Under the pieces are notes generated by a model. It did no database searches and had not been told where the DNA came from. It worked only from the letters and a program-made list of their open reading frames with translations. DNA of 64,000 nt, taken from NCBI GenBank assembly GCA_019351975.1, contig JABBOG010000012.1:1-64000 (forward strand), written 5' to 3'. Shown here one piece after another: positions 3,195 to 32,417 of the stretch. Source of the DNA: Acidobacteriota bacterium. Its GTDB lineage: Bacteria > Acidobacteriota > Terriglobia > Terriglobales > Acidobacteriaceae. The position numbers and the translations under genes are program-made. Position 1 is the stretch's first letter. Every line of letters starts with the position of its first letter.

Positions 3195-4091
3195 ATGGCA
3201 CTTGCGATCCACAATCTTTCGAAGACCTACCCCAATGGGGTCAGGGCGCTCAAAGATCTTTCCCTCAACATCGGCAACGAGATGTTCGGCCTGCTCGGTC
3301 CAAACGGCGCCGGCAAATCCTCTCTCATGCGTACGATCGCAACACTCCAGGATCCAGACTCAGGGACCATCCAACTCGACGAAATCAACGTGCTCAAAGA
3401 TAAATCCGCGGTTCGTCGCGTCCTTGGATACCTGCCACAGGAGTTCGGTGTCTACCCCAAGATGTCTGCACTGGAGATGCTCCACCACCTCGCCATTATG
3501 AAAGGCATCGCCAGCAAAGCTGAACGAAATCAAATGGTGGACGCCCTGCTCAACCAGACAAATCTATGGGCTGCACGCAAAAAATCTCTGAGCACCTACT
3601 CAGGAGGGATGAAGCAAAGGTTCGGGATCGCGCAGGCTCTTCTCGCCAATCCAAAGCTCATCATCGTTGATGAGCCCACCGCCGGTCTCGACCCCGCAGA
3701 GCGTAACCGCTTCCTTAATCTGCTCAGCTCCATCGGATCCAATGTCACAGTCATCCTCTCGACACACATCGTCGAAGACGTCCGGGAGCTTTGCCCGCGC
3801 ATGGCCATCATTGCGAACGGTGAAGTCTTGCTCGAAGGCTCTCCAGCCTCTGCCCTCGAAGCGCTGCGTGGCAAGATCTACTCCAAAGTCGTCGCAACCG
3901 ACGATGAGCTTCGCGCTCTTGAGTCCTCGTTCAACGTCATCTCCACCCATCTCGTCGGAGGTCTGCATGAGGTTCGCATCCATGCCGACTCTAGTCCTGG
4001 CCAGGAGTTTCGTCCTGTAGATTCCGGGCTTGAGGATGTCTACTTTCTCAATCTCACACATCATGCCGCTCGCAGTGCAGCAATCAATTAA
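3195..4091 (+). CDS. ABC transporter ATP-binding protein
   Basis: Walker A GPNGAGKSS, signature YSGGMKQR, Walker B LIIVDEPTAGLDP, H-loop STHIVED. Confidence 0.95.
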   Translation: MALAIHNLSKTYPNGVRALKDLSLNIGNEMFGLLGPNGAGKSSLMRTIATLQDPDSGTIQLDEINVLKDKSAVRRVLGYLPQEFGVYPKMSALEMLHHLAIMKGIASKAERNQMVDALLNQTNLWAARKKSLSTYSGGMKQRFGIAQALLANPKLIIVDEPTAGLDPAERNRFLNLLSSIGSNVTVILSTHIVEDVRELCPRMAIIANGEVLLEGSPASALEALRGKIYSKVVATDDELRALESSFNVISTHLVGGLHEVRIHADSSPGQEFRPVDSGLEDVYFLNLTHHAARSAAIN

Positions 4092-4145
4092 TGCAGTACC
4101 GCCGATACGCAACGATATCCAGAGATTTGGAGACGCAAACGATCT

Positions 4146-7100
4146 ATGGCACAGTTCTGGGAATTCTTTACGTTTGAACTCAAATTTCGCGGCAAAAGCC
4201 TATCCACCTACGTCTACTTCGCACTCTTCTTCTTTCTTACCTTCCTGTCGATTGCGGCACAAGACTTCTTCAATGTCGGTAACGACAAGGTTCTTCTCAA
4301 CGGCCCAGCATCCACATCGATCCTGTACATCCTGTTTAGCTTCTTCGGAATGATCGTCATCGCCGCGATCTTCGGCACCTCAATCCTGCGGGACTTCCAG
4401 CGCAACACCTACCAGATCATCTTCACCAAACCAATCACGAAGATCGCGTATCTAGGTGGCCGCTGGGCCGGTTCCTTCGTCGCTACGGTCTTTGTGTTCT
4501 TTGGCCTTGTCCTTGGAGAAACCGCTGGAACCTTCGCTCCATGGGCAGATCACACTCGTATCGCAACGGGTCACTTCGGCTGGTACATCCACGCCTTCTT
4601 GGCCATCACCGTCGTTCAAATCTTCTTTCTTGGATCCGTCTTCTTCACAATCGCCGCCCTCACACGCAAGCTTTTCATTGTGTACCTTCAGGGCGTCGTA
4701 CTCTTTATCGTCTACCTCGTCATCAACGCTGTCTTCTCTGCGACACGCTCCCTCGAGCACTTCTGGTCAGCGATCTTCGATCCCGTCGGCCTTCGACTCT
4801 TCAGCGTCATCACCCGCTATTGGACCCCGGTCGAACAGAATACCCTTCAACTCAACTGGACAGGCGTGTTCCTCTATAACCGGCTCGTCTGGATCAGCGT
4901 CGGCCTCATCTTTCTCGCCGCTGTTTACAAGTTGTTTCCTCTGTCGGTCGAAGCGCTCACCGCTGTATCCCAGGGTCGGCGAGCCGCTCGCGACCGCGAA
5001 AACGATGCAGCGAATACACCCTCCGTTCGGTCTCTCGTCGCTCCTCGGCTTCCCCTCGTCCACCAGGTATTTAGCACCTCCACAACCGTGGCCCAGTTTC
5101 TCTCGCTCACGCGGCTTCGCATCAAAAATATCGTCACCGAACTTCCCTTCTGGGCGATCTTCTGCGTGATGGTTATGTACGCACTTCTTCTTGGCCACTT
5201 CGCCGGACGAGTCGAAGACGGCAACGTGTATCCAGTCACCTTCCTGATGGTCAGCGCTGTCGAAGGTAACGCGTTTATCTTCCTCCTTGTCATCGCCACG
5301 CTCTACGCCGGTGAGCTCGTCTGGCGCGAGCGAGATACGCACTTCGACGGAATCCAGGATGCGCTCCCCATGCGCGAGTCCACCGATTGGCTATCGAAAC
5401 TCGCTGCTCTGGTCACCGTGGAACTCATTCTTCTTACCGTCATCATGTTCTGCGGAATTCTCTCCCAGATCTTTGCCGGCTACTTTCACTTCGAGATCGT
5501 CGAGTACATCAAAGAACTCTACTTCGTTACCTTTCCTCAGGTACTCATCTTTGTCCTTGTCGCTCTCTTCCTCCAGACCATCGTCTCGAATAAATTCATT
5601 GGGCACGGCATCGTCATTGGTCTCTTCGTTCTAAATGCCGTCCTCTTTGCGCACGGATGGGAAAATACCCTCTATCTCTTCGGCAATACACCTCCCTACA
5701 CCTACTCGGACATGAACGGCTACGGCCACTTTGCGCCGGCGCTCTTCTGGTCGCTCCTTTATTGGCTATCGATCGCTGCATTCCTCAGCGTGCTGTCGAT
5801 TGGCCTCGCTCTACGTGGCTCCGACGATGCATGGAGTTCGCGGCTGCGCCTATTGCGCCAACGCGCCCCAAGACTCGTACCCGCAGCTGTTTTCTTCGCT
5901 CTCCTCGCGGTCGCCAGCGGCAGCTGGTACTACTACAACAGCCATGTACTCAATGAATTCATCTCTGCCCCTCATCAGCGCGATATCCAGGCCCAATACG
6001 AGCGCGATTTCAAGAAGTACTGGCATCTTCCCCAGCCAAAGATTATCTCGGTTGACGCAAACATCGACATATTTCCCGAACACCGCGCGTTTTCTGGAAC
6101 CGGGCACTACCTGCTCCAGAACAAGACCTCAACGCCTGTTAGTCAAATCCATATCGTCGATTCGAAACAGTCAATTTCGAACGTTCGCTTCGATCGTCCC
6201 TTTCATAAAATATCTTCAAGCCCCCGCAATCTCTACACCATCTACGCTCTCGATCAACCGCTCGCGCCCGGAGACAAGCTCAATATGGACTTCTCCGTTG
6301 GATACACGCCGCACGGCTTCCGCGACGGAGGAGAGCGTCCCGAACTCGCCTACTCCGGCACCTTCTTTGACGTCTCGTACTTCCCCGAGATCGGCTACGA
6401 TACAAACCTCGAACTCACAGACCCTCGCCGCCGTCGTGAAGAGCACCTCGGTCCCGTCACCGATCTCCCTCAGCGCGGTGACCCGCTCGGCAGCCGCACA
6501 AACCTGTTCACCCCCGACTCCGACTGGATCTCCTACAACACGACCGTCAGCACATCCGACCATGACTCCGAAGGCAAACCCCAGATAGCGCTCGCTCCCG
6601 GCTACCTGCAAAGGGATTGGCACGCCAACGGCCGCCACTACTTCCAATACAGCATGGGCGACGTCAAAACTCTCGACTTCTTTTCCTACGTCTCCGCTCG
6701 CTACGACGTCAAAAAAGTTGTCTACCAAGGCGTCAGCGGCCCCATCAACATCGAGGTCTACTACGATCCCCACCACCCGTACGACGTTGACGACATGATC
6801 GCCTCCGCCAAGGCTGGCCTTGCCTACTACGAGCAGAACTACTCGCCGTTCCAGTTCAAACAGTTCCGCATCCTCGAGTACCCCCGCTACCGCAACTTCG
6901 CGCAGTCCTTCCCCAACACCGTCCCCTACGCCGAAACGGGCTTCATCGGACGCGTCGTCGATCCCACCACAGATATCGATCGCACCTACTTCGTCACCGC
7001 ACACGAACTCGCTCATCAATGGTGGGGCCACCAACTCATCGGCGGAGCCGTCGCCGGCTCTAACATGATGTCCGAATCACTCGCCGAGTACTCCGCGCTG

Positions 7101-7805
7101 CGTATCGCACAAAAGAAATACGGCGACGTCCAGATGCATAAGTTCCTCCGCCACGAGCTCGACGGCTACCTCCGCGGACGCGCCGCCGAAGCTCACAAAG
7201 AGCCGCCAATCGTCCTCGTACAGCGAGAAGCCTATGTCTGGTATCAAAAGGGGTCCCTGGTTCTTTATGGCCTCGCAGACTATATCGGTGAAGATAAGGT
7301 CAACCTCGCCCTGCACAACTTCCTCATGCAATATCGTTACGCCAACGCCAATACCGCTCAAGACGTTCCATATCCCGACACGCGCCAGTTCGTCGCCGCC
7401 CTTCGTGCCCAGACCCCACCTGAGTATCAGTACTACATCACGGACGCCTTCGAGAACATCGTTCTCTACGACAACAAGGCTCTGACTGCAACCTACATCC
7501 AGACTCCAGACAAGAAATACAAGGTGACCCTAACAGTTCAGGCACGGAAGTTAAAATCCGATGGCTCCGGCAATGAGTCCCCCATGCCCCTCGCCGACTA
7601 CATTGACATAGGCATCTTTTCCGGTAAAAAGGATCACGAAAAGACGCTGTACCTCGCAAAGAATAAGTTCCTTTCTGCGAATGACGGCAAACAGACATTC
7701 ACTGTTACCGTCGATCAGATGCCTACACGCGCAGGGATCGACCCATTCAATAAACTCATCGACCGCATTCCCGATGACAATGTGATCGACATCACCAAGC
7801 CGTAG
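4146..7805 (+). CDS. ABC-2 type permease fused to M1-family metallopeptidase domain
   Basis: 1219 aa. Many hydrophobic segments in the N-terminal ~600 aa; C-terminal zinc peptidase motif HELAHQWWGHQ with downstream SESLAEYSAL. Confidence 0.9.
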   Translation: MAQFWEFFTFELKFRGKSLSTYVYFALFFFLTFLSIAAQDFFNVGNDKVLLNGPASTSILYILFSFFGMIVIAAIFGTSILRDFQRNTYQIIFTKPITKIAYLGGRWAGSFVATVFVFFGLVLGETAGTFAPWADHTRIATGHFGWYIHAFLAITVVQIFFLGSVFFTIAALTRKLFIVYLQGVVLFIVYLVINAVFSATRSLEHFWSAIFDPVGLRLFSVITRYWTPVEQNTLQLNWTGVFLYNRLVWISVGLIFLAAVYKLFPLSVEALTAVSQGRRAARDRENDAANTPSVRSLVAPRLPLVHQVFSTSTTVAQFLSLTRLRIKNIVTELPFWAIFCVMVMYALLLGHFAGRVEDGNVYPVTFLMVSAVEGNAFIFLLVIATLYAGELVWRERDTHFDGIQDALPMRESTDWLSKLAALVTVELILLTVIMFCGILSQIFAGYFHFEIVEYIKELYFVTFPQVLIFVLVALFLQTIVSNKFIGHGIVIGLFVLNAVLFAHGWENTLYLFGNTPPYTYSDMNGYGHFAPALFWSLLYWLSIAAFLSVLSIGLALRGSDDAWSSRLRLLRQRAPRLVPAAVFFALLAVASGSWYYYNSHVLNEFISAPHQRDIQAQYERDFKKYWHLPQPKIISVDANIDIFPEHRAFSGTGHYLLQNKTSTPVSQIHIVDSKQSISNVRFDRPFHKISSSPRNLYTIYALDQPLAPGDKLNMDFSVGYTPHGFRDGGERPELAYSGTFFDVSYFPEIGYDTNLELTDPRRRREEHLGPVTDLPQRGDPLGSRTNLFTPDSDWISYNTTVSTSDHDSEGKPQIALAPGYLQRDWHANGRHYFQYSMGDVKTLDFFSYVSARYDVKKVVYQGVSGPINIEVYYDPHHPYDVDDMIASAKAGLAYYEQNYSPFQFKQFRILEYPRYRNFAQSFPNTVPYAETGFIGRVVDPTTDIDRTYFVTAHELAHQWWGHQLIGGAVAGSNMMSESLAEYSALRIAQKKYGDVQMHKFLRHELDGYLRGRAAEAHKEPPIVLVQREAYVWYQKGSLVLYGLADYIGEDKVNLALHNFLMQYRYANANTAQDVPYPDTRQFVAALRAQTPPEYQYYITDAFENIVLYDNKALTATYIQTPDKKYKVTLTVQARKLKSDGSGNESPMPLADYIDIGIFSGKKDHEKTLYLAKNKFLSANDGKQTFTVTVDQMPTRAGIDPFNKLIDRIPDDNVIDITKP

Positions 7806-8088
7806 TCCTCAACCAAAACCTTTGCGATTCGATGTAAAGTGATTCCACGAGCTGCGCGCAGAATCGGCGAAAATTCCTCCCGCGCTGAAGCCTGCTCTTA
7901 TTCATGCAAAGAAAAGACTCCTCCCCCGCGATCCATCTGGACTCACGAGAAGTTTCTATTTTGGCTCTTTACGAGAGCCATCCTTGCCCTTACTTTTACA
8001 TCACACGAACCGCTTGCATCATGGCGTCCTAACGTCATTCTTAAAGCTCCAGGCAGCGCGCGCACATTACGGCCAATCGAGGAGAACT

Positions 8089-8538
8089 ATGAGGACAGGA
8101 TTCAAGATCACGCTTGAGGTCGTTTTAACCTTTGGGCTTCTACTTCCTTCAATGCATGCCCAATCGCCTCCGCCAGCAGCTCCTCTCACAAGCAGTCAAC
8201 AGGAAAGCCAGGTTGAAATCTACCGCATCGCTCCCGGACAGCAAGAGGCATTCCTAAAATTCATAGCGCTCTGCGACGAAGCCAATCGTCAGGCAGGCAT
8301 GCAGCCGCGGCAACTCTTTGTCCACGAAGACGGTGCTGACTGGGACTTTCTTCTGATCCAGCCATTGCACAACACGGACCAGCAGAACAAGGCATGGTCC
8401 GCTGCTGCTGCCCGCTTGGGAATCCCCCACGGCGGCGACTTCTTTTTGGCAATCCGCCAGTTCATCGCGGGTCACACCGATACTGCGGTCATTGGTCCTA
8501 CGACCGCCTCCGATTGGCTGAATCAGCTGCACAAATAG
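8089..8538 (+). CDS. secreted hypothetical protein
   Basis: ATG at 8089 preceded by GAGGAGAACT. Signal-like MRTGFKITLEVVLTFGLLLPSMHAQ. Confidence 0.65.
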   Translation: MRTGFKITLEVVLTFGLLLPSMHAQSPPPAAPLTSSQQESQVEIYRIAPGQQEAFLKFIALCDEANRQAGMQPRQLFVHEDGADWDFLLIQPLHNTDQQNKAWSAAAARLGIPHGGDFFLAIRQFIAGHTDTAVIGPTTASDWLNQLHK

Positions 8539-8590
8539 CTGATCTCCCCCACTACAACGCAGCCCAGAACAACATCCAGCGGGATAACGT

Positions 8591-10015
8591 GTGACACCTC
8601 CTAAAGCACATGATCGGACCCATCAATTAGCTGCGGCGGTGGTTCGATCGCTCGCGTCCATTGTCCTCTGCGTCACGGCATCTCAAATACACGCACAATC
8701 GCCGCCACTTCCCGATCCGTTTCCCAGCACCTACAAGCCGATGCCACGCGTTGACACCGTGATTCAAAATGCCACGATATTCGATGGCATCGGCCACAAG
8801 CTTCTGCACGGAAGTATTCTTCTGCGCGATGGCAAAATCATCGCAGTTGGGCCTGCAATCCGCGCACCTGCCGGCACAAAAATTATCGATGCTCACGGTG
8901 GTTATCTGACTCCCGGCCTTATAGACGTTCACTCACACCTCGGCGATTTCGCAGCGCCGTACACGCTGCAGGATGCAAAAGTATCCGATGTAAACGAAGA
9001 AAGCGACCCCAACTCCGCCGAGGTTTGGGCACTGCACTCCATTCGCGTGCAGGATCCACAGTTCTCTCGTGTCCGCGCCGCAGGTGTCACCACCCTCCAG
9101 GTTCTTCCAGGCTCCAGCGATCTCTTCGGTGGCCGCGGCGTTGTTCTTAAGAACGTTCCTGCCGTTACGGTGCAGCAGATGGAATTTCCTGATGCAATGC
9201 CATCGCTCAAAATGGCCTGCGGCGAAAATCCAAAGTATACCTTCGGCCAGAAAGGAAAATTTCCTTCCAGCGAAATGGGGAACGTAGCCGGCTACAGGGA
9301 GGCATGGATCGCTGCAGCCGAGTACAAACGTACCTGGGATGACTACTACGCAAAGCACGATCCGACCCTCGCCCCACCTCCCCGCAATCTGAAACTTGAA
9401 ACCCTCGCAGCCGTTCTTCGCGGCCAGATTCTTGTCGATATGCATTGCTACCGTGCCGACGAGATGGCCATCATGATCGATGTCGCGAAAGAGTTCGGCT
9501 ACAAGATCAACGCGTTTCATCATGCTGTCGAAGCGTACAAGATCGTTCCGCTCCTCAAGCAGAACGGCGTCTGCGTTGCTGTCTGGGCCGACTGGTGGGG
9601 ATTCAAAGTAGAAGCCTTCGACGCCATTCGCACAAATGCCGCATTTGTGGACGCTGGTGGCGGTTGCGTCATGCTGCACTCGGATGCTCCCATCAGCGCC
9701 GAACATCTTCCTCAGGACGCGGCTCTCATCCTTGGCGCTGCCCGTCGCGTCGGCATCGATATCCCTGAAGAGCACGCCATCGAGTGGCTTACCATCAATC
9801 CGGCGAAGTCGCTCCGCCTCGACAGTAGGATCGGTGCACTTGAGCCCGGGAAGAATGCAGATGTCGTCCTCTGGTCTGGAGATCCTTTCAGCGTCTACAG
9901 CCGCGCTACGATGGTATTTCTTGATGGAGCCGTCATCTACGACCGTAACGATCCCGCCATGCAGCCCATCTCAGACTTCGATGTCGGACAGCCGGCGATG
10001 GAGCCACCGCAATGA
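8591..10015 (+). CDS. secreted amidohydrolase family protein
   Basis: GTG start. Metal motif PGLIDVHSHLGDF, C-terminal SLRLDSRIGALEPGKNADVVLWSGDPFS. Confidence 0.9.
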   Translation: MTPPKAHDRTHQLAAAVVRSLASIVLCVTASQIHAQSPPLPDPFPSTYKPMPRVDTVIQNATIFDGIGHKLLHGSILLRDGKIIAVGPAIRAPAGTKIIDAHGGYLTPGLIDVHSHLGDFAAPYTLQDAKVSDVNEESDPNSAEVWALHSIRVQDPQFSRVRAAGVTTLQVLPGSSDLFGGRGVVLKNVPAVTVQQMEFPDAMPSLKMACGENPKYTFGQKGKFPSSEMGNVAGYREAWIAAAEYKRTWDDYYAKHDPTLAPPPRNLKLETLAAVLRGQILVDMHCYRADEMAIMIDVAKEFGYKINAFHHAVEAYKIVPLLKQNGVCVAVWADWWGFKVEAFDAIRTNAAFVDAGGGCVMLHSDAPISAEHLPQDAALILGAARRVGIDIPEEHAIEWLTINPAKSLRLDSRIGALEPGKNADVVLWSGDPFSVYSRATMVFLDGAVIYDRNDPAMQPISDFDVGQPAMEPPQ

Positions 10016-11313
10016 GCCTCAGCTACGGCCGCAGCGTATGGTCAAGTGTTCTTTGCCTGGCGAGCATATGCTGCCACGCACAATCGCTCGCTATCACTCA
10101 TGCTACCGCCTATCTTCATCCCGGACGTCCGCCGCTTCAAAACGCAACCATCCTCATCGTCAACGGGAAGATCGCTGCGGCCGGCGATAGCGTCCCTGTC
10201 CCTCAAGGAACGCGTACCATCGACGCACACCATCACATGGTCACACCGGGCCTCATGAACTCCGACAGCCAGCTAGGTCTGCTTGAGACCGGCACCGATG
10301 ACACGTCAGACTCAGCCGTAGCAACAGGACCTTTTGGTGCAGCCTTCGATGTGCAGTATGCCCTCAATCCGAATTCGACGCTTCTTCCCGTCGCGCGCGC
10401 GGACGGTCTTACCCGCGCCATGGTGATGCCCACAAATTCAGCAACGCCTCCCTTCGACGGGTTGGGCGCCGTGCTCTGTCTCAGCGAAGGCGCTGGCATA
10501 TTGGATCGCCCACACGCCGCCGTCGTCGCTACAGTCGGAGGCATGGTCGCCCCAGCGTCTGGCGGCTCACGCAGCGCGCAATGGATGCTCCTTCGCATGG
10601 CACTCGATGCATCTTCCGCGCATCTCAAGAGGCCCGTTCGAAACGCACCCGCAACATCCGGCCCATCCGCAACGCTGCTTAGCCCAACCAATCTTGCGGC
10701 GCTTACACCAGTCCTCGAACGCAAAATACCACTCGTCGTGAACGCAAGTCGCGAGTCCGATCTTCGGCAGGCGATCGCGCTTGTGGACGACTACAAGATA
10801 CGCGTCGTACTCGTCGGCGCGGACGAAGGCTGGCGCGTGGCACCGCTCCTGGCCTCTCACAATATCCCTGTCGTGCTCGATCCCTACGCGAGCACATCCG
10901 CCACCTACGATCAGACCGGCGCTCGTCTGGATAACGCCGCGATTCTCGATCGCGCAGGTGTGACCATCTCCTTCAAGGCAGCCTTCGTGCATGTTAGCTA
11001 CAACGCAGGCATCGCGATTCGCGAGGGCGCTGGAATCGCCGTCGCCAACGGCCTGCCATGGGCAGAAGCACTCAAAGCCCTCACGACCAATCCAGCCGTC
11101 ACATGGGGCATCGAGAATCACTACGGCACACTCGATGCAGGCAAAGATGCTGACATCGTCATCTGGGACGGTGATCCCCTGGAGCCATCCAGCGCTCCGA
11201 CGCTGGTTCTCATCCGAGGCCGGCAAGTCTCCCTCGAAACTCGCCAGACGCTGCTTGAGAAGCGCTATCGTCCAGCGCTCACTGCAAACCCCTTACCGCC
11301 CGACTATCACTAA
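10012..11313 (+). CDS. amidohydrolase-like protein with degenerate HxH site
   Basis: Overlaps the upstream stop (ATGA). GTLDAGKDADIVIWDGDPLEPSS is typical of the family, but the HxH site reads PGLMNSDSQLG. Confidence 0.85.
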   Translation: MSLSYGRSVWSSVLCLASICCHAQSLAITHATAYLHPGRPPLQNATILIVNGKIAAAGDSVPVPQGTRTIDAHHHMVTPGLMNSDSQLGLLETGTDDTSDSAVATGPFGAAFDVQYALNPNSTLLPVARADGLTRAMVMPTNSATPPFDGLGAVLCLSEGAGILDRPHAAVVATVGGMVAPASGGSRSAQWMLLRMALDASSAHLKRPVRNAPATSGPSATLLSPTNLAALTPVLERKIPLVVNASRESDLRQAIALVDDYKIRVVLVGADEGWRVAPLLASHNIPVVLDPYASTSATYDQTGARLDNAAILDRAGVTISFKAAFVHVSYNAGIAIREGAGIAVANGLPWAEALKALTTNPAVTWGIENHYGTLDAGKDADIVIWDGDPLEPSSAPTLVLIRGRQVSLETRQTLLEKRYRPALTANPLPPDYH

Positions 11314-11322
11314 GGCTCCTCC

Positions 11323-14300
11323 ATGAAGTCTCTTCTCATCCTCGCCCTTAGCCTACCGTTCCTCGCTGCGTCTGCGGTATCCCCGTCCCCGCTCCATGCG
11401 CAACAATCCGCAACCATCCACGAAGAAGGCGACACACTTCCGCTGACTCCTTCTCGCCACATCAAATTCGACGAGCATCAGGGAACATGGGTCTCGCTCG
11501 ATGTATCACCGGACGGCAAAACAGTGATCTTCGAACTGCTCGGCGACATCTATCAAATGGCCGTCAGCGGCGGTGAAGCTCACTGCATCATCTGCGGACT
11601 TCCCTTTGACTCGCAGCCAACCTTCTCCCCCGACGGCACCGCGATAGCCTTCGTCAGCGACCGCTCCGGCGAAGAGAATCTATGGATCGCACGCCCCGAC
11701 GGGTCTCATCCACGACAGATCTCCGCCCTCACAGACAACAGCGTGTTCATCTCACCCGCGTGGTCTGCAGACGGCAAATCCATTTATATCTCCCGCTTCA
11801 ATCCCGACATCAATGCCTTCCAACTCTTTCGCTATACCGTAGCCGACTCTCACGTCGATCAGCTCACGTTTGCAAAACCAACGCCATCCACTCCCAAGGA
11901 GTTCCGTAACAGCGCGCTCGGCGCGGCACCCTCGCCTGACGGCCATTACCTCTACTACGCAGCAAAGACCGGCCTCGGGTTTGACGACGACAACACCTTT
12001 CCGCTCTGGCATATCGTCCGCCGCAACCTCGCCACCGGCGAAGAGAACAGCGTCGTTCATGCGCAAGGCAGCGCCTTCCGTCCGCAGGTCTCACCCGACG
12101 GCAAATCTCTCGTTTACGCCACTCGCTTTCAGGGAAGGACCGGCCTGCGAATCCGCAGCCTCGTCACAGACGAAGATCACTGGCTGCTCTATCCCATCCA
12201 ACGCGATGATCAGGAGACCAGCGCCTCACGCGATCTCCTTCCGCGTTACACATTCACACCGGACAGCCAATCTATCCTGATCAACTTTGGCGGCCTCATT
12301 CATCGGTTCGATATCACAACACACACCCTCACCACGCTTCCTTTCGTCGCGCATGTCAATCTCCCCATGGGCCCCTATCTGCGCCAGGACATCCGCGAAG
12401 ACCTGGGGCCTGTCCGCGCGCGCATCATCCAAACGCCCTCGCAAAGCCCGGACGGAACGCAACTCGTCTTTTCCGCGCTCACCCACATCTACGTCATGTC
12501 CTTTGCCGAAAACAAGCCGCGCCGTCTCACGCAATCCTCACAACCGGAGTTCGACCCGTCGTGGTCTCCCGACGGCCGCTCGATCGTTTACGTCACATGG
12601 ACCGCCATCGACGGAGGCAACATCTGGTGTGCAAATGCAGACGGCTCCGGCGAACCCACACGGCTCACCGACCATCCCGACCTCTATCGCAATCCCGTCT
12701 TCTCGCCCGACGGAAAATCGATCCTCGCACTTCGCTCCAGCAACTACGAATACAACCACACGTACATGGAGTTCAGCCCCTTCCAGTCCGACGCGATCGA
12801 GCTTCCCTCCGCAGGCGGCCCCGCCACAGTGCTTGCATCCGGCATCCTAGGCAACATCCCGCAATTCACCAGCAAGCCCGGCAGCGTCTATCTTAACTTT
12901 GCCGATGGCCTCTACAAGATTCCGCTCAACGGCGCACCCAAACATCGAGCCCTCAGAGTGACAGGTCCCACCTGGTACTTCGTCGATGGAACAGCCGACG
13001 CCGACGCAATTAAAATCAGCCCCGATGGACAGTGGGCACTCGCACAGATCACGGAGCAGCTTTACCTCCTCCATCTTCCCCATGGAACCACGCCATCCGG
13101 CAAGGAGTTTTCCATCGAGCTCGGCAAGCTCTCTCCCCTGGAGACAAGAATTACCTCCATCGGCGCCGACTTCTTCAACTGGGCCGACAGCGGTAAAACC
13201 ATCACCTGGGCCATCGGCTCGACCTACTTCCAACAGTCCCTCGCATCCGTCCTGAGCAGCCACCTCAACCCCCTTGTCACAGCAGAGGATCAGCGCCCCA
13301 ACGTTCACCTCACCTCCATCTCCGTAGAGGTTCCTCGCGACACACCCCACGGACAGCTCGTTCTCCGCGGTGCCACCGCCATCACCATGCGCGGCGCAGA
13401 GGTCATCCCCAACGCCGACATACTCATCCTCGACAACCACATCGCCGCCATCGGCCCCACCGGCACGCTCACAATCCCTCCCGGCGCTACCATCCGCGAC
13501 GTCACTGGAAAATATATCCTTCCCGGCTTCACCGATGTCCATCTGCACTGGGCCGACGTACGGCGCGGAGAGCTCACGCGACTCGACCCCGGTTTTCTCT
13601 CTTCCCTCGCCTTCGGTATCACCTCAGCGCTTGACCCTTCCCCTTTGTCCATCGACATGCTCGCATATCAGGATCTTCTCGATGCAGGCATGATGACCGG
13701 CAGCCGTGTCTTCTCTACCGGCCCCGCCGTTTTTTCCTTCAATCAACTGCAGTCCGAGCAGCAGGCATACAACCTCGTCCGCCGGTACTCTGACTTCTAT
13801 CGGATACAGAACCTGAAGGAATACCGCACCGGCAATCGCATGCAGCGGGAGTGGCTCCTCGAAGCCACGCAATCGCTGCACATGCAGGCGACCACCGAAG
13901 GCGCGCTCGACATGAAGCTCGACATGACCCAGATTCAGGACGGCTTCCCTGGAAACGAGCACGCCTTCTCCGCCGTACCTATCGCAGACGACATCGTCCA
14001 ACTCTTCGCCCGCTCAGGCGTAAGCTACACCCCTACCCTCCAGATCAGTAACGGCGGCCTAGCCGCGCAGGAGTTCTACTACACCACGCAACCATCCCCC
14101 GACGCCATCAATACCGACCGCCGCCTTCGCCACTTCATGCCCGGCTTCTTCATCGACGCCAAAACCGAACGCCTTCGCTGGGCTCTCCCGCGCGAATACG
14201 CATTTCCTCTTGTCGCTGCGGGCGCAGCAAGCATCCAGCGCGCAGGCGGCCTCGTCGCCGTCGGCAGCCACGGTGAAATCCCCGGCCTCGGCTATCACCT

Positions 14301-14616
14301 CGAGCTTCAGGCGCTCGCAACCGGTGGCATGACGCCGATGGAGATCCTCCACGCAGCCACCCTCGGATCAAGCAAGACCATCGGTCGCGACAGCCAGTTT
14401 GGCAGCCTCGAAGCAGGCAAGTTCGCCGATCTCATCATCCTCGACAAAAACCCGCTGAGCGATATCAAAGACACCCTCTCCATCCATTACGTGATGAAGA
14501 ATGGCCGACTGTATGACAGCTACACCCTCAACGAGATCTGGCCCCAACCACGAACCCTTCCACCGCTCTGGTTTCAGAACGACACAGCAGGTATCTCTCC
14601 ATCATCCCAGCCATGA
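11323..14616 (+). CDS. TolB/PD40 beta-propeller + amidohydrolase fusion, secreted
   Basis: Repeated SPDGKS/FSPDGTAIAFVSDRSG propeller motifs. C-terminal amidohydrolase with PGFTDVHLHW and FGSLEAGKFADLIILDKNPL. Confidence 0.92.
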   Translation: MKSLLILALSLPFLAASAVSPSPLHAQQSATIHEEGDTLPLTPSRHIKFDEHQGTWVSLDVSPDGKTVIFELLGDIYQMAVSGGEAHCIICGLPFDSQPTFSPDGTAIAFVSDRSGEENLWIARPDGSHPRQISALTDNSVFISPAWSADGKSIYISRFNPDINAFQLFRYTVADSHVDQLTFAKPTPSTPKEFRNSALGAAPSPDGHYLYYAAKTGLGFDDDNTFPLWHIVRRNLATGEENSVVHAQGSAFRPQVSPDGKSLVYATRFQGRTGLRIRSLVTDEDHWLLYPIQRDDQETSASRDLLPRYTFTPDSQSILINFGGLIHRFDITTHTLTTLPFVAHVNLPMGPYLRQDIREDLGPVRARIIQTPSQSPDGTQLVFSALTHIYVMSFAENKPRRLTQSSQPEFDPSWSPDGRSIVYVTWTAIDGGNIWCANADGSGEPTRLTDHPDLYRNPVFSPDGKSILALRSSNYEYNHTYMEFSPFQSDAIELPSAGGPATVLASGILGNIPQFTSKPGSVYLNFADGLYKIPLNGAPKHRALRVTGPTWYFVDGTADADAIKISPDGQWALAQITEQLYLLHLPHGTTPSGKEFSIELGKLSPLETRITSIGADFFNWADSGKTITWAIGSTYFQQSLASVLSSHLNPLVTAEDQRPNVHLTSISVEVPRDTPHGQLVLRGATAITMRGAEVIPNADILILDNHIAAIGPTGTLTIPPGATIRDVTGKYILPGFTDVHLHWADVRRGELTRLDPGFLSSLAFGITSALDPSPLSIDMLAYQDLLDAGMMTGSRVFSTGPAVFSFNQLQSEQQAYNLVRRYSDFYRIQNLKEYRTGNRMQREWLLEATQSLHMQATTEGALDMKLDMTQIQDGFPGNEHAFSAVPIADDIVQLFARSGVSYTPTLQISNGGLAAQEFYYTTQPSPDAINTDRRLRHFMPGFFIDAKTERLRWALPREYAFPLVAAGAASIQRAGGLVAVGSHGEIPGLGYHLELQALATGGMTPMEILHAATLGSSKTIGRDSQFGSLEAGKFADLIILDKNPLSDIKDTLSIHYVMKNGRLYDSYTLNEIWPQPRTLPPLWFQNDTAGISPSSQP

Positions 14617-14726: not shown

Positions 14727-17700
14727 TCAGAACAGAATCTTCATCGCAAGCTGCGTATTGTACGGCTCACCCGAACCGATGCCGGGCGCTCCCTCCTGTA
14801 CGCCAATCGTCGATGTGCTCTGTCCAAACGTCGACCCATCACCAAGGCTGTTATTCGGCGGCGACAGGTTTATCCGGTTGAGAACATTGAACATCTCGAC
14901 ACGAAACTGCGCGCTCACCCGGTCCTTGTAAATCGGCGTTGTCTTCACCAGCGACAGATCCACATCCCCGAAGCCCGGCCCGTACACCTGATTGCGCCTC
15001 AGATTCCCGTAGGTGCCAACCGTCGGCTCGACAAAGCTGCTCGGATTCAGATACTGCACGTATGAATGTGCCTGCAAGGAACGATTGCTGTTCAGCGCCG
15101 GTCCGATGATGCTCGCGCGGTCTTCGTTCTCACTCGTGCCGCTGTTATTCTGACCGCTCAAAATATTAACCGGCTCTCCATCCTGGAACTTGAGCACACC
15201 ATTGACCTCCCAGCCATGCGTCAGCAGCTTAGGCCCACGCGCGTAGTGCGGAATCTCATAGGTGATATACGCTGAGAAGTGATTGCGGATATCAAAGTTT
15301 GAGTTACCCCAGTCTCCCTTCAGATCAGTCGAATTCTGCGGAAGAATGTTGAACGCGGTGGAGTCGTCCATGTTGTGGCTCCACGCATACGCAAACTGAG
15401 CCGTCAGCCCGTGCCACGCACTGCTCCGCAGCGTCACCTGCAGTGAGTTATAGCTCGCGGACGCAGCCGAGTTCAACTGGTTGATGATCCCGAAGTTAGG
15501 ATACTGACTGAAATATGGACGTGAGCATTGCTGATCATTTCCTGGTATCGTCGGTGTTGCTCCGCTAAACGCCGCCGGGCACGTCGCTGAGCTATACGGC
15601 ACAGCCACATTCAAGCTGTTCAGTGCTGGCTGGTTGATATCCTGCAACACGAGGTTATGGCGGCTGAGCGATCCTACATAGCCAATGTTCAACTGCCAGT
15701 TCGAACCAAAGCTCTGCTCCAGGTTCACCCCAAACAACTCCGCATACGGAGTCTTGAAGTTCGGCGTGACCGAGTAGATTGAAACCACATTGCTACCCGT
15801 TGGCTGACCCTCCGCCGGCGTGAATAACGGCGTAGCCGGGTTGCTGATCGTCCAAATCGGTGCAAGCGGGCTGGGCGCGCCACGAACGATCGACTCATTC
15901 GGCTCCGTTCCGGCGGGATTGTTGTTCACGCCGCCTGCTCCGTTGTTCGGAATGCCGATGTTGCCGAAGAAAGCCTGCCCAGCCGGCTGGTCAAAGTAAA
16001 TGCCATAGTTTGCACGCAGAACCAGACTCTCGTGCACCTGGTACGTGACGCCGATGCGCGGCGAAAAATCCAGCTTGTTGCTCTTGTAGAAGTACTGCTG
16101 CGAACCCTTTGCACCCGCCACGACCAGCCCGCCGTTGTTCGGCTCAAAGGTCGAAAGATTTGGCTCATTGGTATAAAACGGCTGCTGATAGTCGTAACGA
16201 ATGCCAAGATTCACATTCATCTTCGGCGTCACCTGCCACGAGTCCTCCGCAAACGTCGTTCCAGTGTGCGTATAAATGAACCGCTCTTCATTGCCCAGAA
16301 TATTGCTGTATTGGCTCGAGTACCCAGCAAGATAGTCCGCCAGATTCTGTACATTCGGATCCGAAATCGCCGTCGAGTTGGCCCACGGCCCAAGCACGCC
16401 GTTGGTCCCGAAGTAGAACGCTCCCAGTGCACCGAAGTTGTAATAAAGGTCGATATAAGCGCGCCGGTATTCCACGCCCAGGCGCACCTGGTGCTTGCCA
16501 ATGGTCCACGAGAGCGTGTCCGAAATATGCCCCGTAATATCGTTACGCCCAGACAAAGGCGTAATGCCGATCGAGTCGAAGCCGTTGATGCTAACCTGCG
16601 GTGATCCCGTCAGCGTCGATCCAGTATCCAGCCCCGTCATCGCCAGAACATCCTGGGTATGCACAGCATCCACAAAGCCCTGCGTGAAGAAGCTCGCACC
16701 GGCTGCAACCTGGTTGGTCAGGTTCGGACGCAAAATGTAATTCCACACCACATCATAGTTCTGGATGTGCGATGGTACCGTCTGAAAGTACTCCGGCAGA
16801 TAGCTGCAGACATAGATGCACTCGGGTGCATCAGCATACCCTTGACCGAAAAACCAGCGCGCCGACAAGTGGCTGCGCTCGCTGAAGTTGTTGTCCAATT
16901 TGACAACAAGGTTGTGGCTATAACCGCTCTGCGGCGCATTGCTGGAGTAGTTATTCGGCGTGCCTGGCAGATTCGCAATCACCGACGGATCCCACAGCGT
17001 ACTCAATATATTCTCGGAGATCTGGCTTGGCGCCACCGGAGCATACGTTCCATACGCCCCATTCGCGTTCGCCAGCACTGCCAGCGCCTCCTGCACATAC
17101 GCAGGCGACGGCTCAGTCACCGTATGCGACTCCCCAATGACAAACTTCTGCTCCTCGTAAGCGAGGAAGAAGAAGGTATGGTCCTTCCAGATCGGTCCGC
17201 CCACCGAGCCGCCATAGTTCTGGTTACGCAACGGCAGCGACGGCGAACCCGGCGCCGTGAACGGATTCGCCACCGCCAGCGCTTCATTGCGGTTGAAGTA
17301 GTACGCCGTTCCGTGCACCGCATTCGTGCCGGACTTCGTCGAAACATTCAGATTACCGCCGGGGCTCCGGCCCGTCTCGCTCTCGCCATTCGTCTGCAGC
17401 GAGTACTCATCGATCGCATCCATCGGATAGATGACTCCGGCAATCCCACTGATACCGCCCTGATTCACCGCATCCGCATTCAAGTACAAATCATTGTTGT
17501 CGGTTCCATCAATCGTGTAATTCACCTGGTCATTGCGCATGCCGTTCACAGAACCAGAGTTCCCGATGCCCGCGAACGCCACCGACGTCCCAAGCAGTTG
17601 CGTGAAATCGCGCCCGTCCAGCGGCACGTCCTGCAGCGCTTTACCATCCAGCACCGTCGTCTGCGTCGTAGAAGTCGTGTCGAGCGACAGAGCATTCGCC

Positions 17701-18074
17701 GCCACTTCCACCGTGGTCGCCGCCTGCGCAAGCGCCAGTTTGATCGGCAGCGTATACACCTTTCCAGCAATCACTGAAACGCCGCTCACATCGATGGTCT
17801 GGAAGCCAGCCGCCATCGCCGTAACCTTGTACGTGCCAAGCGGCAGATCGCTGAAGTTAAACTCGCCTGCACTGGAAGCCACAACGTTGTACACCGTGCC
17901 TGTCGAGGTCTCCGTCGCGACCACATGCGCCTGCGGAATATCCGCACCCGAAGGATCAGTGACAGTGCCATTGATGCTGCCACGGAACGTCTGTCCCAAC
18001 GACGCCGTAGAAAACAGCGACAAAACAACCAGCAGTGCCGAAGCGGCTACAAACCATTTCCTGAGCAGATTCAT
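14727..18074 (-). CDS. TonB-dependent receptor with N-terminal carboxypeptidase-regulatory-like domain (Oar-like)
   Basis: Signal peptide; GTVTDPSGADIPQAHVVATETSTG; plug and barrel regions ending NTQLAMKILF. Start taken at MNLLRKWF, preceded by GGAGGAAC. Confidence 0.92.
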   Translation of the reverse strand: MNLLRKWFVAASALLVVLSLFSTASLGQTFRGSINGTVTDPSGADIPQAHVVATETSTGTVYNVVASSAGEFNFSDLPLGTYKVTAMAAGFQTIDVSGVSVIAGKVYTLPIKLALAQAATTVEVAANALSLDTTSTTQTTVLDGKALQDVPLDGRDFTQLLGTSVAFAGIGNSGSVNGMRNDQVNYTIDGTDNNDLYLNADAVNQGGISGIAGVIYPMDAIDEYSLQTNGESETGRSPGGNLNVSTKSGTNAVHGTAYYFNRNEALAVANPFTAPGSPSLPLRNQNYGGSVGGPIWKDHTFFFLAYEEQKFVIGESHTVTEPSPAYVQEALAVLANANGAYGTYAPVAPSQISENILSTLWDPSVIANLPGTPNNYSSNAPQSGYSHNLVVKLDNNFSERSHLSARWFFGQGYADAPECIYVCSYLPEYFQTVPSHIQNYDVVWNYILRPNLTNQVAAGASFFTQGFVDAVHTQDVLAMTGLDTGSTLTGSPQVSINGFDSIGITPLSGRNDITGHISDTLSWTIGKHQVRLGVEYRRAYIDLYYNFGALGAFYFGTNGVLGPWANSTAISDPNVQNLADYLAGYSSQYSNILGNEERFIYTHTGTTFAEDSWQVTPKMNVNLGIRYDYQQPFYTNEPNLSTFEPNNGGLVVAGAKGSQQYFYKSNKLDFSPRIGVTYQVHESLVLRANYGIYFDQPAGQAFFGNIGIPNNGAGGVNNNPAGTEPNESIVRGAPSPLAPIWTISNPATPLFTPAEGQPTGSNVVSIYSVTPNFKTPYAELFGVNLEQSFGSNWQLNIGYVGSLSRHNLVLQDINQPALNSLNVAVPYSSATCPAAFSGATPTIPGNDQQCSRPYFSQYPNFGIINQLNSAASASYNSLQVTLRSSAWHGLTAQFAYAWSHNMDDSTAFNILPQNSTDLKGDWGNSNFDIRNHFSAYITYEIPHYARGPKLLTHGWEVNGVLKFQDGEPVNILSGQNNSGTSENEDRASIIGPALNSNRSLQAHSYVQYLNPSSFVEPTVGTYGNLRRNQVYGPGFGDVDLSLVKTTPIYKDRVSAQFRVEMFNVLNRINLSPPNNSLGDGSTFGQSTSTIGVQEGAPGIGSGEPYNTQLAMKILF

Positions 18075-18434
18075 CGTTCCTCCATAAATGATGCAGCGAT
18101 GCGGACCATCTTGCTGAAGCGAATTCCTGCTCCGCAGACGGTTGATGTACGTAGTGAATGACTGAACAAGCAAGCTGCACGGAGCAGCTCACAGATATTG
18201 CAGTTTGATACAGCCCGGCAACGTCATGAACAACAGGTGACGCAACAGCAAAAAATCAAACATTCGCTTCGGGCGCCTTTGCAAGATCAACAACAACCGC
18301 GCAGCCTTGAAGCTTGATGCAACATGGAATGAAATGCAGCATACCACATATCGTCAGAGTTGCAGCCCCCATCACCGCGCCACACCCCAACCTCACCCTG
18401 TGGACGCACGGCTCCGCATCCATCCCGCGCCCAC

Positions 18435-20581: not shown

Positions 20582-21844
20582 ATGTTTGAAGTCCGTAGTC
20601 ACGACGCACTCACGGGCAGACGTTTCTTTGTAACGATCTTACTGTTTTGCTGCTCTGCAATCTCAGTCTGCTTTGGACAGACAACTTCAACTCCCAACCT
20701 GCAAACACTGTCTGATTCGCATCAATGGTTCGCATTGCGCGATGCCACAGAGCATAAAAAAGCCCCTCTGATTTACCGTGCTATCACTGAATACGCGTTC
20801 AATCAGGTAAGGCCCGCGCAGAAACATCTCAACGCTGTCATCAAGACTGCGCCACACTCCGACAACGCATACGACGCACACGGAATGCTGGCGAACCTGG
20901 ACTTCCGGAATGGCCTCTATCGCGAAGCGTATCTCCAGCTAGAGGCGATGCTGTCGGAAAAGCCGAACGCAGCAGACGTGAAGAATATGATCTCCATGTT
21001 CCGCGCACTGAGCCAATCGGACCAGAGCGTGGTGGCAAAGAAGGCATCCACTCTTCCAATGGCTATGAACGAAAACGGGATGTTCATTCCCCTCGTCTTG
21101 GACGGGCGTGAGGCTCGCTATCTTCTCGACACCGGCTTTAATTTGTCCGCAATGAGCGAATCTGAGGCGAAGCGGCTTGGGTTACAGGTTCAAAGTGTTG
21201 AGACACAATTTGGTTCGATCACCGCGGCGAGTCTGTCTGTACGCGTTGCCTTCGCGAAAGATGTGTTCGTCGGTGGCCTTCATCTGCGGAACGTTGCGTT
21301 TGATGTGATTCCAGATGCACAGGAACCGTTTGTCGATTTGCCTTCTGGAGACCGTGGAATTTTAGGGATTCCCGTTTTGCTGGATATGCAGACGTTCCGT
21401 TGGAACCCGAACGGAACGTTTGCCTTCGGGTTTAAGCCAAAGCATAAGAATCTCTCCGCCTCAAATCTTGCCTTCGACGCACTTACCCCTGTGACGCAAG
21501 TGGCCGTTGAAAAAAAAGAGCTTGAATTTTCCCTCGATACGGGAGCAACGCGCTCGATCTTGTACGCTCCGTTTGCCAAAGAATTTCCCGGCCTGGTGAG
21601 TGCTTCTGGCCAAAAAGAATCGCACACCTTGACGGGAGTCGCCGGAACCTCGACCTACAACTCCGTCGTGCTCCCATCAGTAGACCTCGAGTTGGGTGGA
21701 CTGGATGTACACCTTACACCAGCCCACATTCTTACTCAAGACATCAACGCAAACTGGGCACCAGGAAATCTGGGCAGGGATCTACTGAACCAAGCCCACA
21801 CGATCACTTTCGACTTCAACGCCATGACACTCAGACTGCAATGA
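20582..21844 (+). CDS. secreted retropepsin-like aspartyl protease with TPR-like N-terminal region
   Basis: Signal-like FFVTILLFCCSAISVCFG. Two aspartyl protease motifs: RYLLDTGFNLSAM and EFSLDTGATRSIL. Confidence 0.8.
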   Translation: MFEVRSHDALTGRRFFVTILLFCCSAISVCFGQTTSTPNLQTLSDSHQWFALRDATEHKKAPLIYRAITEYAFNQVRPAQKHLNAVIKTAPHSDNAYDAHGMLANLDFRNGLYREAYLQLEAMLSEKPNAADVKNMISMFRALSQSDQSVVAKKASTLPMAMNENGMFIPLVLDGREARYLLDTGFNLSAMSESEAKRLGLQVQSVETQFGSITAASLSVRVAFAKDVFVGGLHLRNVAFDVIPDAQEPFVDLPSGDRGILGIPVLLDMQTFRWNPNGTFAFGFKPKHKNLSASNLAFDALTPVTQVAVEKKELEFSLDTGATRSILYAPFAKEFPGLVSASGQKESHTLTGVAGTSTYNSVVLPSVDLELGGLDVHLTPAHILTQDINANWAPGNLGRDLLNQAHTITFDFNAMTLRLQ

Positions 21845-31401: not shown

Positions 31402-32417
31402 GGCCTTCGATGGCATCAAGAGAAAACACCAAAGAGCACCTTCCGCGTGATGACGCGCGCAAACAAATGCGCGCTTTCTTCTTCGAGACCCAGAAAAGCA
31501 CCCTCAATAAGTGCTTAGCTCCCGGTGGCGTCTGCACGGCTCGAGCGATAAAGGCTCATTTTGTGCAGAACGGACGTGTCATGGAACTACTTGCTGAAAA
31601 TGGTCACGTCAAAGGCGTGCGTGGGATTGTGAAGAAAGATCGGTCGACGAGGATCGAAGGTCCAATACTCGAATTCGCAGATATCGGCAGGAATGAAGCC
31701 TCAACATTCGAGGGATTTTGCGGTCGTCACGACGCAGAGATATTCAAGAAGCTTGATTCCTCGCCGCTTGATCGCTCAAACGAAGAGCAACTGTACCTCT
31801 TGGCTTACAGATCGATCTCACACACTATCCATGCCCTAATGAGCTCGGGAATGCGTTCACAACGCGGTTATCAAGAGCGTATACGGGTTGGCTGGGACTC
31901 AGGTAACGAGCCGGAGCCCGCAGGAGAAATGGCCTTGCACTTTTTAATGCAAGGCTACGAGCTGTGGACCTATAGGGAACCTCTTAGCGAGGGTCTACTA
32001 CGAAGTGATTTCCAGATGCTTCATCATCGCGTGCTGACTCTCGAACATAATGCGCCGAGTTTTGCCGCAAGCGCTTGCTTCAATTACAGACTCAACGTTC
32101 GACAAGAAGCTGACTCATACATGGCGATTAATGTTTTTCCTATCTCGGAAACGGAGTCGCTGGCGATTCTGAGCTACATTCCAGAGGATTCGAAGAATGC
32201 CGATGTATTCCTCTCGCCAATCCTGGAAGCGAACGGTGATTATCAAAAGTACCTCTTATCTAAGTTGGTTTTGGCTCACTGTCAGAACTTTTACATCTCA
32301 CCGCGTCTTTTCAATACGTGGCCCACGAATAAAGTGAATGAAATCTTGTCGTTCTTCAATCAGACTCTGCTAAAGGATGCCGCTCTTGATAACGAACATC
32401 TTTTTTTATTCGCATAG
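31398..32417 (+). CDS. hypothetical protein of unknown function inserted between deoC and ALDH
   Basis: 339 aa; start overlaps the deoC stop, alternative start MRAFFFETQ at 31467. Visibly lower GC. Cys/His-containing N-terminal half (NKCLAPGGVCTARAIKAHFVQN...FEGFCGRHDAEIFKKLD). Confidence 0.8.
   Translation: MRPSMASRENTKEHLPRDDARKQMRAFFFETQKSTLNKCLAPGGVCTARAIKAHFVQNGRVMELLAENGHVKGVRGIVKKDRSTRIEGPILEFADIGRNEASTFEGFCGRHDAEIFKKLDSSPLDRSNEEQLYLLAYRSISHTIHALMSSGMRSQRGYQERIRVGWDSGNEPEPAGEMALHFLMQGYELWTYREPLSEGLLRSDFQMLHHRVLTLEHNAPSFAASACFNYRLNVRQEADSYMAINVFPISETESLAILSYIPEDSKNADVFLSPILEANGDYQKYLLSKLVLAHCQNFYISPRLFNTWPTNKVNEILSFFNQTLLKDAALDNEHLFLFA

What the first reader, a model, noticed from the sequence alone, without database searches (positions are those of the whole stretch)
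3195..14616. Co-directional ABC ATPase, permease-M1 peptidase fusion, small secreted protein and three amidohydrolases
Six genes share a strand; the three amidohydrolase genes are nearly contiguous (ATGA overlap at 10012, 10-nt gap at 11313/11323). A membrane ABC-2 permease fused to a zinc peptidase, its ATPase, and a set of exported amidohydrolases/propeller fusions suggest a functional system for handling a peptide or peptidomimetic at the envelope. Individual families are known; I am not aware of a characterised role for the combination.
Basis: partly seen in the sequence, partly recalled or inferred. Interest (0 to 1): 0.65.

Follow-up and report, generated by a model that had tools for sequence, protein, structure and literature searches.

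The report
Two unrelated operons, one with pseudoenzyme pair
The six genes are two separate units lying side by side: a widespread two-gene membrane transporter carrying a zinc peptidase, and an exported amidohydrolase operon in which a working enzyme is permanently paired with a dead look-alike, a pairing that is often fused into one protein in related bacteria.

Summary

Unit A is the ATPase plus the permease-M1 fusion (3195-7805). It is a stand-alone two-gene ABC transporter found in Acidobacteriota, Bacteroidota and Pseudomonadota. The ATPase precedes the fusion in 72 of 75 assessable loci. No amidohydrolase of the present type was found in the flanks (up to 10 kb) of any of 80 loci, including an 82%-identical relative.

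Unit B is small protein-AH1-AH2-AH3 (8089-14616). AH1-AH2-AH3 recurs in this order in three other Acidobacteriaceae. One of these, in the same genus, also has unit A, but on another contig.

The unexpected part is AH1/AH2. AH1 keeps all five metal ligands; AH2-type partners keep 0-2 of 5. In 48 other genomes of the class with AH1, AH2 is always present and follows directly in 47. In other Acidobacteriota AH1 is fused to a degenerate partner in one ORF, and each of 12 loci examined has exactly one intact domain. I infer a periplasmic complex of one catalytic and one or two non-catalytic amidohydrolase subunits. The substrate is unknown, perhaps peptide-like. No experiment was run and no paper was found on either unit.

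The parts
3195..4091 (+). Unit A: ABC ATPase, 298 aa, DrrA/GldA-like; Walker A GPNGAGKSS, signature YSGGMKQR, Walker B LIIVDEPTAGLD
   Evidence: Pfam ABC_tran 107.9 bits; orthologue directly upstream of the fusion in 72 of 75 assessable loci
4146..7805 (+). Unit A: single-chain ABC-2 type permease (two six-helix halves plus one more helix, residues about 19-596) fused to an M1-type zinc peptidase (about 600-1219, zinc motif HELAH at 953, Glu977)
   Evidence: Peptidase_M1 46.7 bits; hydropathy; alignment of nine relatives, H953, E954, H957, E977, E930, Y1033 invariant
8089..8538 (+). Unit B (probable): small exported protein, 149 aa, predicted signal peptide and dimeric alpha/beta-barrel (NIPSNAP/ABM-like) domain
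   Evidence: 52 nt before AH1; its only homologue in 72,556 plasmids lies about 2.6 kb from AH1-AH2 orthologues on Novosphingobium pSA1; model pLDDT 71-85 in the domain, best fold matches NIPSNAP/ABM proteins, E 1.6e-3
8591..10015 (+). Unit B: AH1, exported catalytic amidohydrolase, metal ligands H114, H116, H285, H311, D365
   Evidence: Closest solved structure 3ooq, E 3e-60; ligands invariant in nine orthologues and in 65 of 74 AH1-class sequences
10012..11313 (+). Unit B: AH2, exported degenerate amidohydrolase (D, Q, N, G, A at the five ligand positions)
   Evidence: Paralogue of the same 3ooq family, E 1e-27; AH2 class keeps 0-2 of 5 ligands in 54 of 54; always next to AH1
11323..14616 (+). 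Unit B: AH3, exported PD40 beta-propeller fused to an amidohydrolase domain (residues about 680-1065); conserved H740, H742, E859, H880, H983
   Evidence: Pfam PD40 and Amidohydro_1; orthologues follow AH2 in L176, L177, L178 at 60-76% identity
14727..18173 (-). Possible partner of unit B: CarboxypepD_reg + OMP_b-brl_4 outer-membrane receptor-like protein, convergent with AH3
   Evidence: PF25183 608 bits; a member of this family lies directly upstream of AH1 in L176 and L178 and next to AH2 in L181, but only 26-27% identical and the genome has about 40 such genes

Best explanation
The stretch is two evolutionarily independent units that happen to be neighbours. Unit A is a two-gene ABC transporter: an ATPase dimer drives a single-chain permease whose C-terminal zinc peptidase domain faces the periplasm and probably trims peptides that the transporter moves or senses. 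Unit B is an exported degradative operon. AH1 is the catalytic subunit and AH2 is its obligate non-catalytic partner, probably bound to it as a heteromer; AH3 (propeller-amidohydrolase) and the small alpha/beta-barrel protein act on the same substrate or its products in the periplasm. Shown: gene content, two separate conservation units, ligand retention in AH1 and loss in AH2, fusion of AH1 to degenerate partners elsewhere. Inferred: physical complex, export, peptide-like substrate, transport direction.
For: Unit A: ATPase directly upstream of the fusion in 72 of 75 loci from several phyla, with no other shared neighbour family in more than 7 loci. Unit B: AH1-AH2-AH3 in the same order at 79/73/76% in G330, 66/59/61% in G277, and in G225; rare small-protein homologue near AH1-AH2 in a different phylum. 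Separation of A and B. AH1/AH2 obligate pair: 48 of 48 other class genomes, adjacent in 47, one split by a contig end. Ligands: AH1 65 of 74 with 5/5, AH2 none with 3 or more. Fusions: seven AH1-AH2 and five AH0-AH1 ORFs, exactly one intact domain at each locus.
Against: No expression or biochemical data. The AH2 model is poor (mean pLDDT 58), so retention of a complete barrel is not shown, although its best fold match is 3ooq. The permease domain is under the Pfam cut-off. AH3 and the small protein are linked to AH1-AH2 in few genomes; in most of the class AH3 relatives lie elsewhere. In the M1 domain the zinc Glu is 19 rather than 18 residues after HExxH and the GxMEN exopeptidase motif is not recognisable, so aminopeptidase activity is uncertain.
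Confidence: 0.72

Rival explanations
1. One functional envelope system of all six genes for handling a peptide or peptidomimetic.
For: Same strand; all products membrane-bound or with predicted export signals; no terminator-like site on the + strand between the units.
Against: The linkage is unique to this genome: absent in 80 fusion loci, in 7 class genomes that hold both units and in a same-genus genome with both.
Confidence: 0.04
2. AH2 is not a dead subunit but an enzyme that uses a different, relocated active site, and AH1 and AH2 act in sequence as two separate enzymes.
For: AH2 has its own conserved positions (for example W274, N331, D388, Y419). Loss of family ligands does not exclude new chemistry.
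Against: AH2 relatives differ widely at the ligand positions with no new consensus of metal-binding residues, and AH0 partners are degenerate in other ways.
Confidence: 0.22
3. Only AH1-AH2 is a functional unit; AH3, the small protein and the outer-membrane protein are recent or incidental neighbours.
For: AH3 relatives are unlinked to AH1 in the class sample; the outer-membrane family is abundant; the small protein is missing from the other three triplet loci.
Against: The triplet order is kept down to 60% identity in three genomes; the small protein recurs near AH1-AH2 in a sphingomonad although it is very rare.
Confidence: 0.2

Closest known systems
3ooq, Thermotoga maritima amidohydrolase (PDB, function not stated)
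   Same: AH1 aligns over its whole length, E 3e-60, with the metal-site motifs (HSH, MHxxRAD, EAY) in register; AH2 is a more distant relative, E 1e-27
   Different: AH1 is paired with a degenerate paralogue; the PDB entry is a single protein species
Proteins annotated 'M1 family aminopeptidase' next to an ABC ATPase, e.g. Hymenobacter swuensis pHsw1 and Granulicella tundricola pACIX903
   Same: Same ATPase-fusion gene pair and same architecture over about 1200 aa
   Different: In Hymenobacter a histidine kinase and a LytTR regulator precede the pair; not so in the window
Propeller-amidohydrolases (TolB-like PD40 + Amidohydro_1), e.g. Novosphingobium sp. RL4
   Same: AH3 matches end to end at about 41% identity
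   Different: There AH1-AH2 were not found within the fetched flanks
Inactive amidohydrolase subunits such as the non-catalytic dihydroorotase PyrC' that stabilises aspartate transcarbamoylase in pseudomonads (from my own knowledge)
   Same: Works like: a dead amidohydrolase paralogue kept as a structural partner
   Different: Not the same family branch; here the partner of the dead subunit is the live paralogue, sometimes in one chain
Isopeptidase Atxe2 family of lasso peptide clusters
   Same: AH3's propeller gives a weak match (65 bits, cut-off 400)
   Different: The match covers propeller repeats; AH3 carries an amidohydrolase domain instead of a serine peptidase

Membership tests
ABC transporter (ATPase subunit) | Walker A, signature and Walker B motifs | tested here: met
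   GPNGAGKSS, YSGGMKQR, LIIVDEPTAGLD read in the translation; PF00005 107.9 bits, cut-off 25
ABC-2 type permease | Curated Pfam match and six-helix membrane domain | tested here: inconclusive
   ABC2_membrane_4 26.4 bits against cut-off 27; hydropathy shows two groups of about six helices and one more
M1 peptidase | Curated family score and HExxH motif | tested here: met
   PF01433 46.7 bits, cut-off 27.7; HELAH at residue 953, invariant in nine relatives
M1 peptidase | Third zinc ligand Glu 18 residues after HExxH | tested here: inconclusive
   An invariant Glu (E977) follows, but with 19 residues between, in all nine aligned relatives
M1 aminopeptidase (exopeptidase) | GxMEN motif that anchors the N-terminus | tested here: not met
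   The corresponding region reads PNTxPYxE with only the Glu (E930) kept; filed as M1-type peptidase, not as proven aminopeptidase
Metal-dependent amidohydrolase, AH1 | HxH, two further His and Asp metal ligands | tested here: met
   H114, H116, H285, H311, D365, aligned with 3ooq, invariant in nine orthologues
Metal-dependent amidohydrolase, AH2 | Same five metal ligands | tested here: not met
   D, Q, N, G, A in the window; 0 of 54 AH2-class sequences keep three or more. It belongs to the superfamily by descent, not to the catalytic class
Propeller-amidohydrolase, AH3 | PD40 propeller plus Amidohydro_1 with HxH and further conserved His/Glu | tested here: met
Pseudoenzyme-enzyme complex | Physical interaction and dependence of activity on the dead partner | not testable with these tools
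   Only genetic linkage and fusion are shown

The most novel reading that the evidence does not exclude
Acidobacteriota and some sphingomonads keep an obligate exported amidohydrolase complex built from one catalytic subunit and one or two paralogous non-catalytic subunits (AH0, AH2), repeatedly fused into single chains. It would be an undescribed example of enzyme-pseudoenzyme co-evolution in the amidohydrolase superfamily.
Probability: 0.5. Interest if true: 0.55.

Novelty: new variant of a known kind. Interest (0 to 1): 0.4.

Why it matters
It prevents a false composite system from being followed up. It also points to two testable things: a widespread, apparently uncharacterised transporter with a built-in periplasmic peptidase domain, and a conserved pairing of a live and a dead amidohydrolase. 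The second would make the role of pseudoenzyme subunits in this large superfamily directly testable with one co-expression experiment.

Tried and rejected
Six-gene system: rejected on linkage. A lasso-peptide or other RiPP link: only a sub-cut-off propeller match; the microviridin protease paper concerns an M1 protease without permease (PMC13039773). A shared third gene for the fusion pair: none recurred in more than 7 loci; the most frequent were histidine kinase (7 loci) and LytTR-type regulator (5) in Bacteroidota-rich sets. Terminator or promoter between the units: pattern scans gave no more than shuffled sequence, fold z-score -0.77. Small protein in Pfam, NCBIfam and PHROGs: no match. 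The outer-membrane gene as a firm partner: left as possible, because the family has about 40 members in this genome. Ten literature searches found no paper on the permease-M1 fusion or on the AH1/AH2 pair; subscription journals are mostly not held.

Full report
Observation. Pfam confirms an ABC ATPase, an M1 peptidase domain at the end of a long membrane protein, and amidohydrolase domains in the last three genes, the third after a PD40 propeller. The ABC-2 assignment of the membrane part rests on a score just under the curated cut-off (26.4 against 27) and on hydropathy, which shows two groups of about six helices plus one more before the peptidase. With a cytoplasmic N-terminus this would put the peptidase domain in the periplasm (inference). 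The four products from 8089 onward start with signal-peptide-like sequences (read from sequence).

Unit A is separate. Searched in 151 genomes of the class, the fusion occurs in 12 and AH1 in 49. Seven genomes other than the window's hold both, always on different contigs; in G069 and G097 both loci are more than 20 kb from contig ends. A scan of 84,980 named species gave 80 fusion loci with up to 10 kb flanks, from Acidobacteriota, Bacteroidota, Pseudomonadota, Ignavibacteria and others. In 72 of 75 loci with at least 900 nt upstream, an orthologous ATPase ends within 400 nt before the fusion; no locus has AH1, AH2, AH3 or the small protein above 100 bits. The closest relative, a Granulicella sp. 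at 82%, has only the ATPase and the fusion. The scan selected loci by two peptide patterns, one of them around HQWW, so motif conservation is taken from the nine-sequence alignment instead. The same-genus genome G330 carries both units far apart: fusion on C14 (79,245 bases, position 31,752), amidohydrolases on C4. Its fusion DNA matches that of Granulicella sp. S156 (L061) over the 2,000 bases compared.

How unit A probably works. ATPase motifs are intact and the fusion keeps the zinc motif HELAH, the following Glu977, Glu930 and Tyr1033 in all nine relatives. Two features are unusual for M1 aminopeptidases: the zinc Glu is one residue further away, and GxMEN is not recognisable. The domain is therefore called M1-type here, and exopeptidase activity is not claimed. 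The nearest solved M1 structures are ER aminopeptidases, matched only over the catalytic domain; no chain with the permease was found. In Hymenobacter swuensis a histidine kinase and a LytTR regulator precede the pair, and such genes recur in a few of the scanned loci. This arrangement resembles envelope-stress or peptide-sensing modules (inference). The pair is plasmid-borne in Granulicella tundricola and Hymenobacter.

Unit B. AH1-AH2-AH3 in this order recurs in G330 (79/73/76% identity), G277 (66/59/61%) and G225. In G330 and G277 an outer-membrane receptor-like gene of the OMP_b-brl_4 family lies directly upstream, and in G424 one follows AH2; in the window a member of that family is convergent downstream. 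These outer-membrane proteins are only 26-27% identical and about 40 exist in the genome, so this link is suggestive only. The small protein is rare: one further genome in the class sample and none in the phylum sample, and one hit in 72,556 plasmids, about 2.6 kb from AH1-AH2 orthologues on Novosphingobium resinovorum pSA1. This argues that it belongs to unit B. Its model looks like a dimeric alpha/beta-barrel (NIPSNAP/ABM-like) with modest confidence. In Qipengyuania citrea AH1-AH2 follow a peptide MFS transporter gene, the only direct hint of a peptide-like substrate.

The live/dead pair. Aligned with 3ooq, AH1 has the ligands H114, H116, H285, H311 and D365, invariant in nine orthologues. 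AH2 has D, Q, N, G and A there. In a larger set, 65 of 74 AH1-class sequences keep all five ligands and none of 54 AH2-class sequences keeps more than two; several of the nine exceptions in the AH1 class are edge fragments that look misassigned. By hand comparison, each of 48 other class genomes with AH1 also has AH2, directly downstream on the same strand in 47; in G076 the pair is cut by a contig end. AH2 is thus not a decaying duplicate: it is kept wherever AH1 is.

Fusions. Unusually long open frames at AH1 hits in other classes led to 12 fetched loci. Seven have AH1-AH2 in one ORF and five have another degenerate copy (AH0) fused before AH1 with AH2 next. At every locus exactly one domain keeps HHHHD; the partners keep 0-2 ligands (one partner, in L194, fell into alignment gaps and could not be scored). 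Fusion of proteins that are separate elsewhere is accepted evidence for physical association (established reasoning). The best explanation is a complex of one catalytic and one or two non-catalytic subunits. The role of the dead subunit (stability, substrate binding or allostery) is not known.

Known or new. Each protein family is known, and NCBI annotates the fusion as 'M1 family aminopeptidase' and AH1 as 'amidohydrolase'. No paper on either unit was found in ten searches. Dead amidohydrolase subunits are known in principle (PyrC', from my own knowledge). The case is rated a new variant of a known kind.

Noticed in passing
L190, L193, L194, L196, L198, L199, L201 (AH1-AH2) and L191, L192, L195, L197, L200 (AH0-AH1): Natural fusions of a live and a degenerate amidohydrolase in one ORF; many loci hold three paralogues of which only one keeps the metal ligands.
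   Followed up: yes
L175 7092-7971 (Granulicella tundricola plasmid pACIX903): The ATPase before the permease-M1 fusion matches in two pieces in different frames and is not annotated, so the gene looks frameshifted or mis-sequenced.
   Followed up: partly
L187 (Hymenobacter swuensis pHsw1), and several of L083-L121: Histidine kinase and LytTR-type regulator genes sit beside the ATPase-fusion pair, like sensor-transporter modules for envelope stress.
   Followed up: partly
L173 849-5516, L176 275-4584, L178 1515-4030: A further exported-looking Amidohydro_3 gene lies near AH1-AH2 in three loci; in L176 and L178 with an FMN_bind_2 (PaiB-like) gene, in L173 with a TonB receptor and the small-protein homologue.
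   Followed up: partly
window 14727-18173 and whole genome G000: About 40 OMP_b-brl_4 outer-membrane receptor-like genes in a 3.9 Mb genome, a large expansion.
   Followed up: no
window 4146-7805: In this permease-fused M1 group the zinc Glu is 19 residues after HExxH instead of 18 and GxMEN is not recognisable, so its peptidase chemistry may differ from classical aminopeptidases.
   Followed up: partly
window 20582-21844: TPR-like region with two retropepsin-like aspartyl protease domains (Asp_protease_2), one ORF.
   Followed up: no
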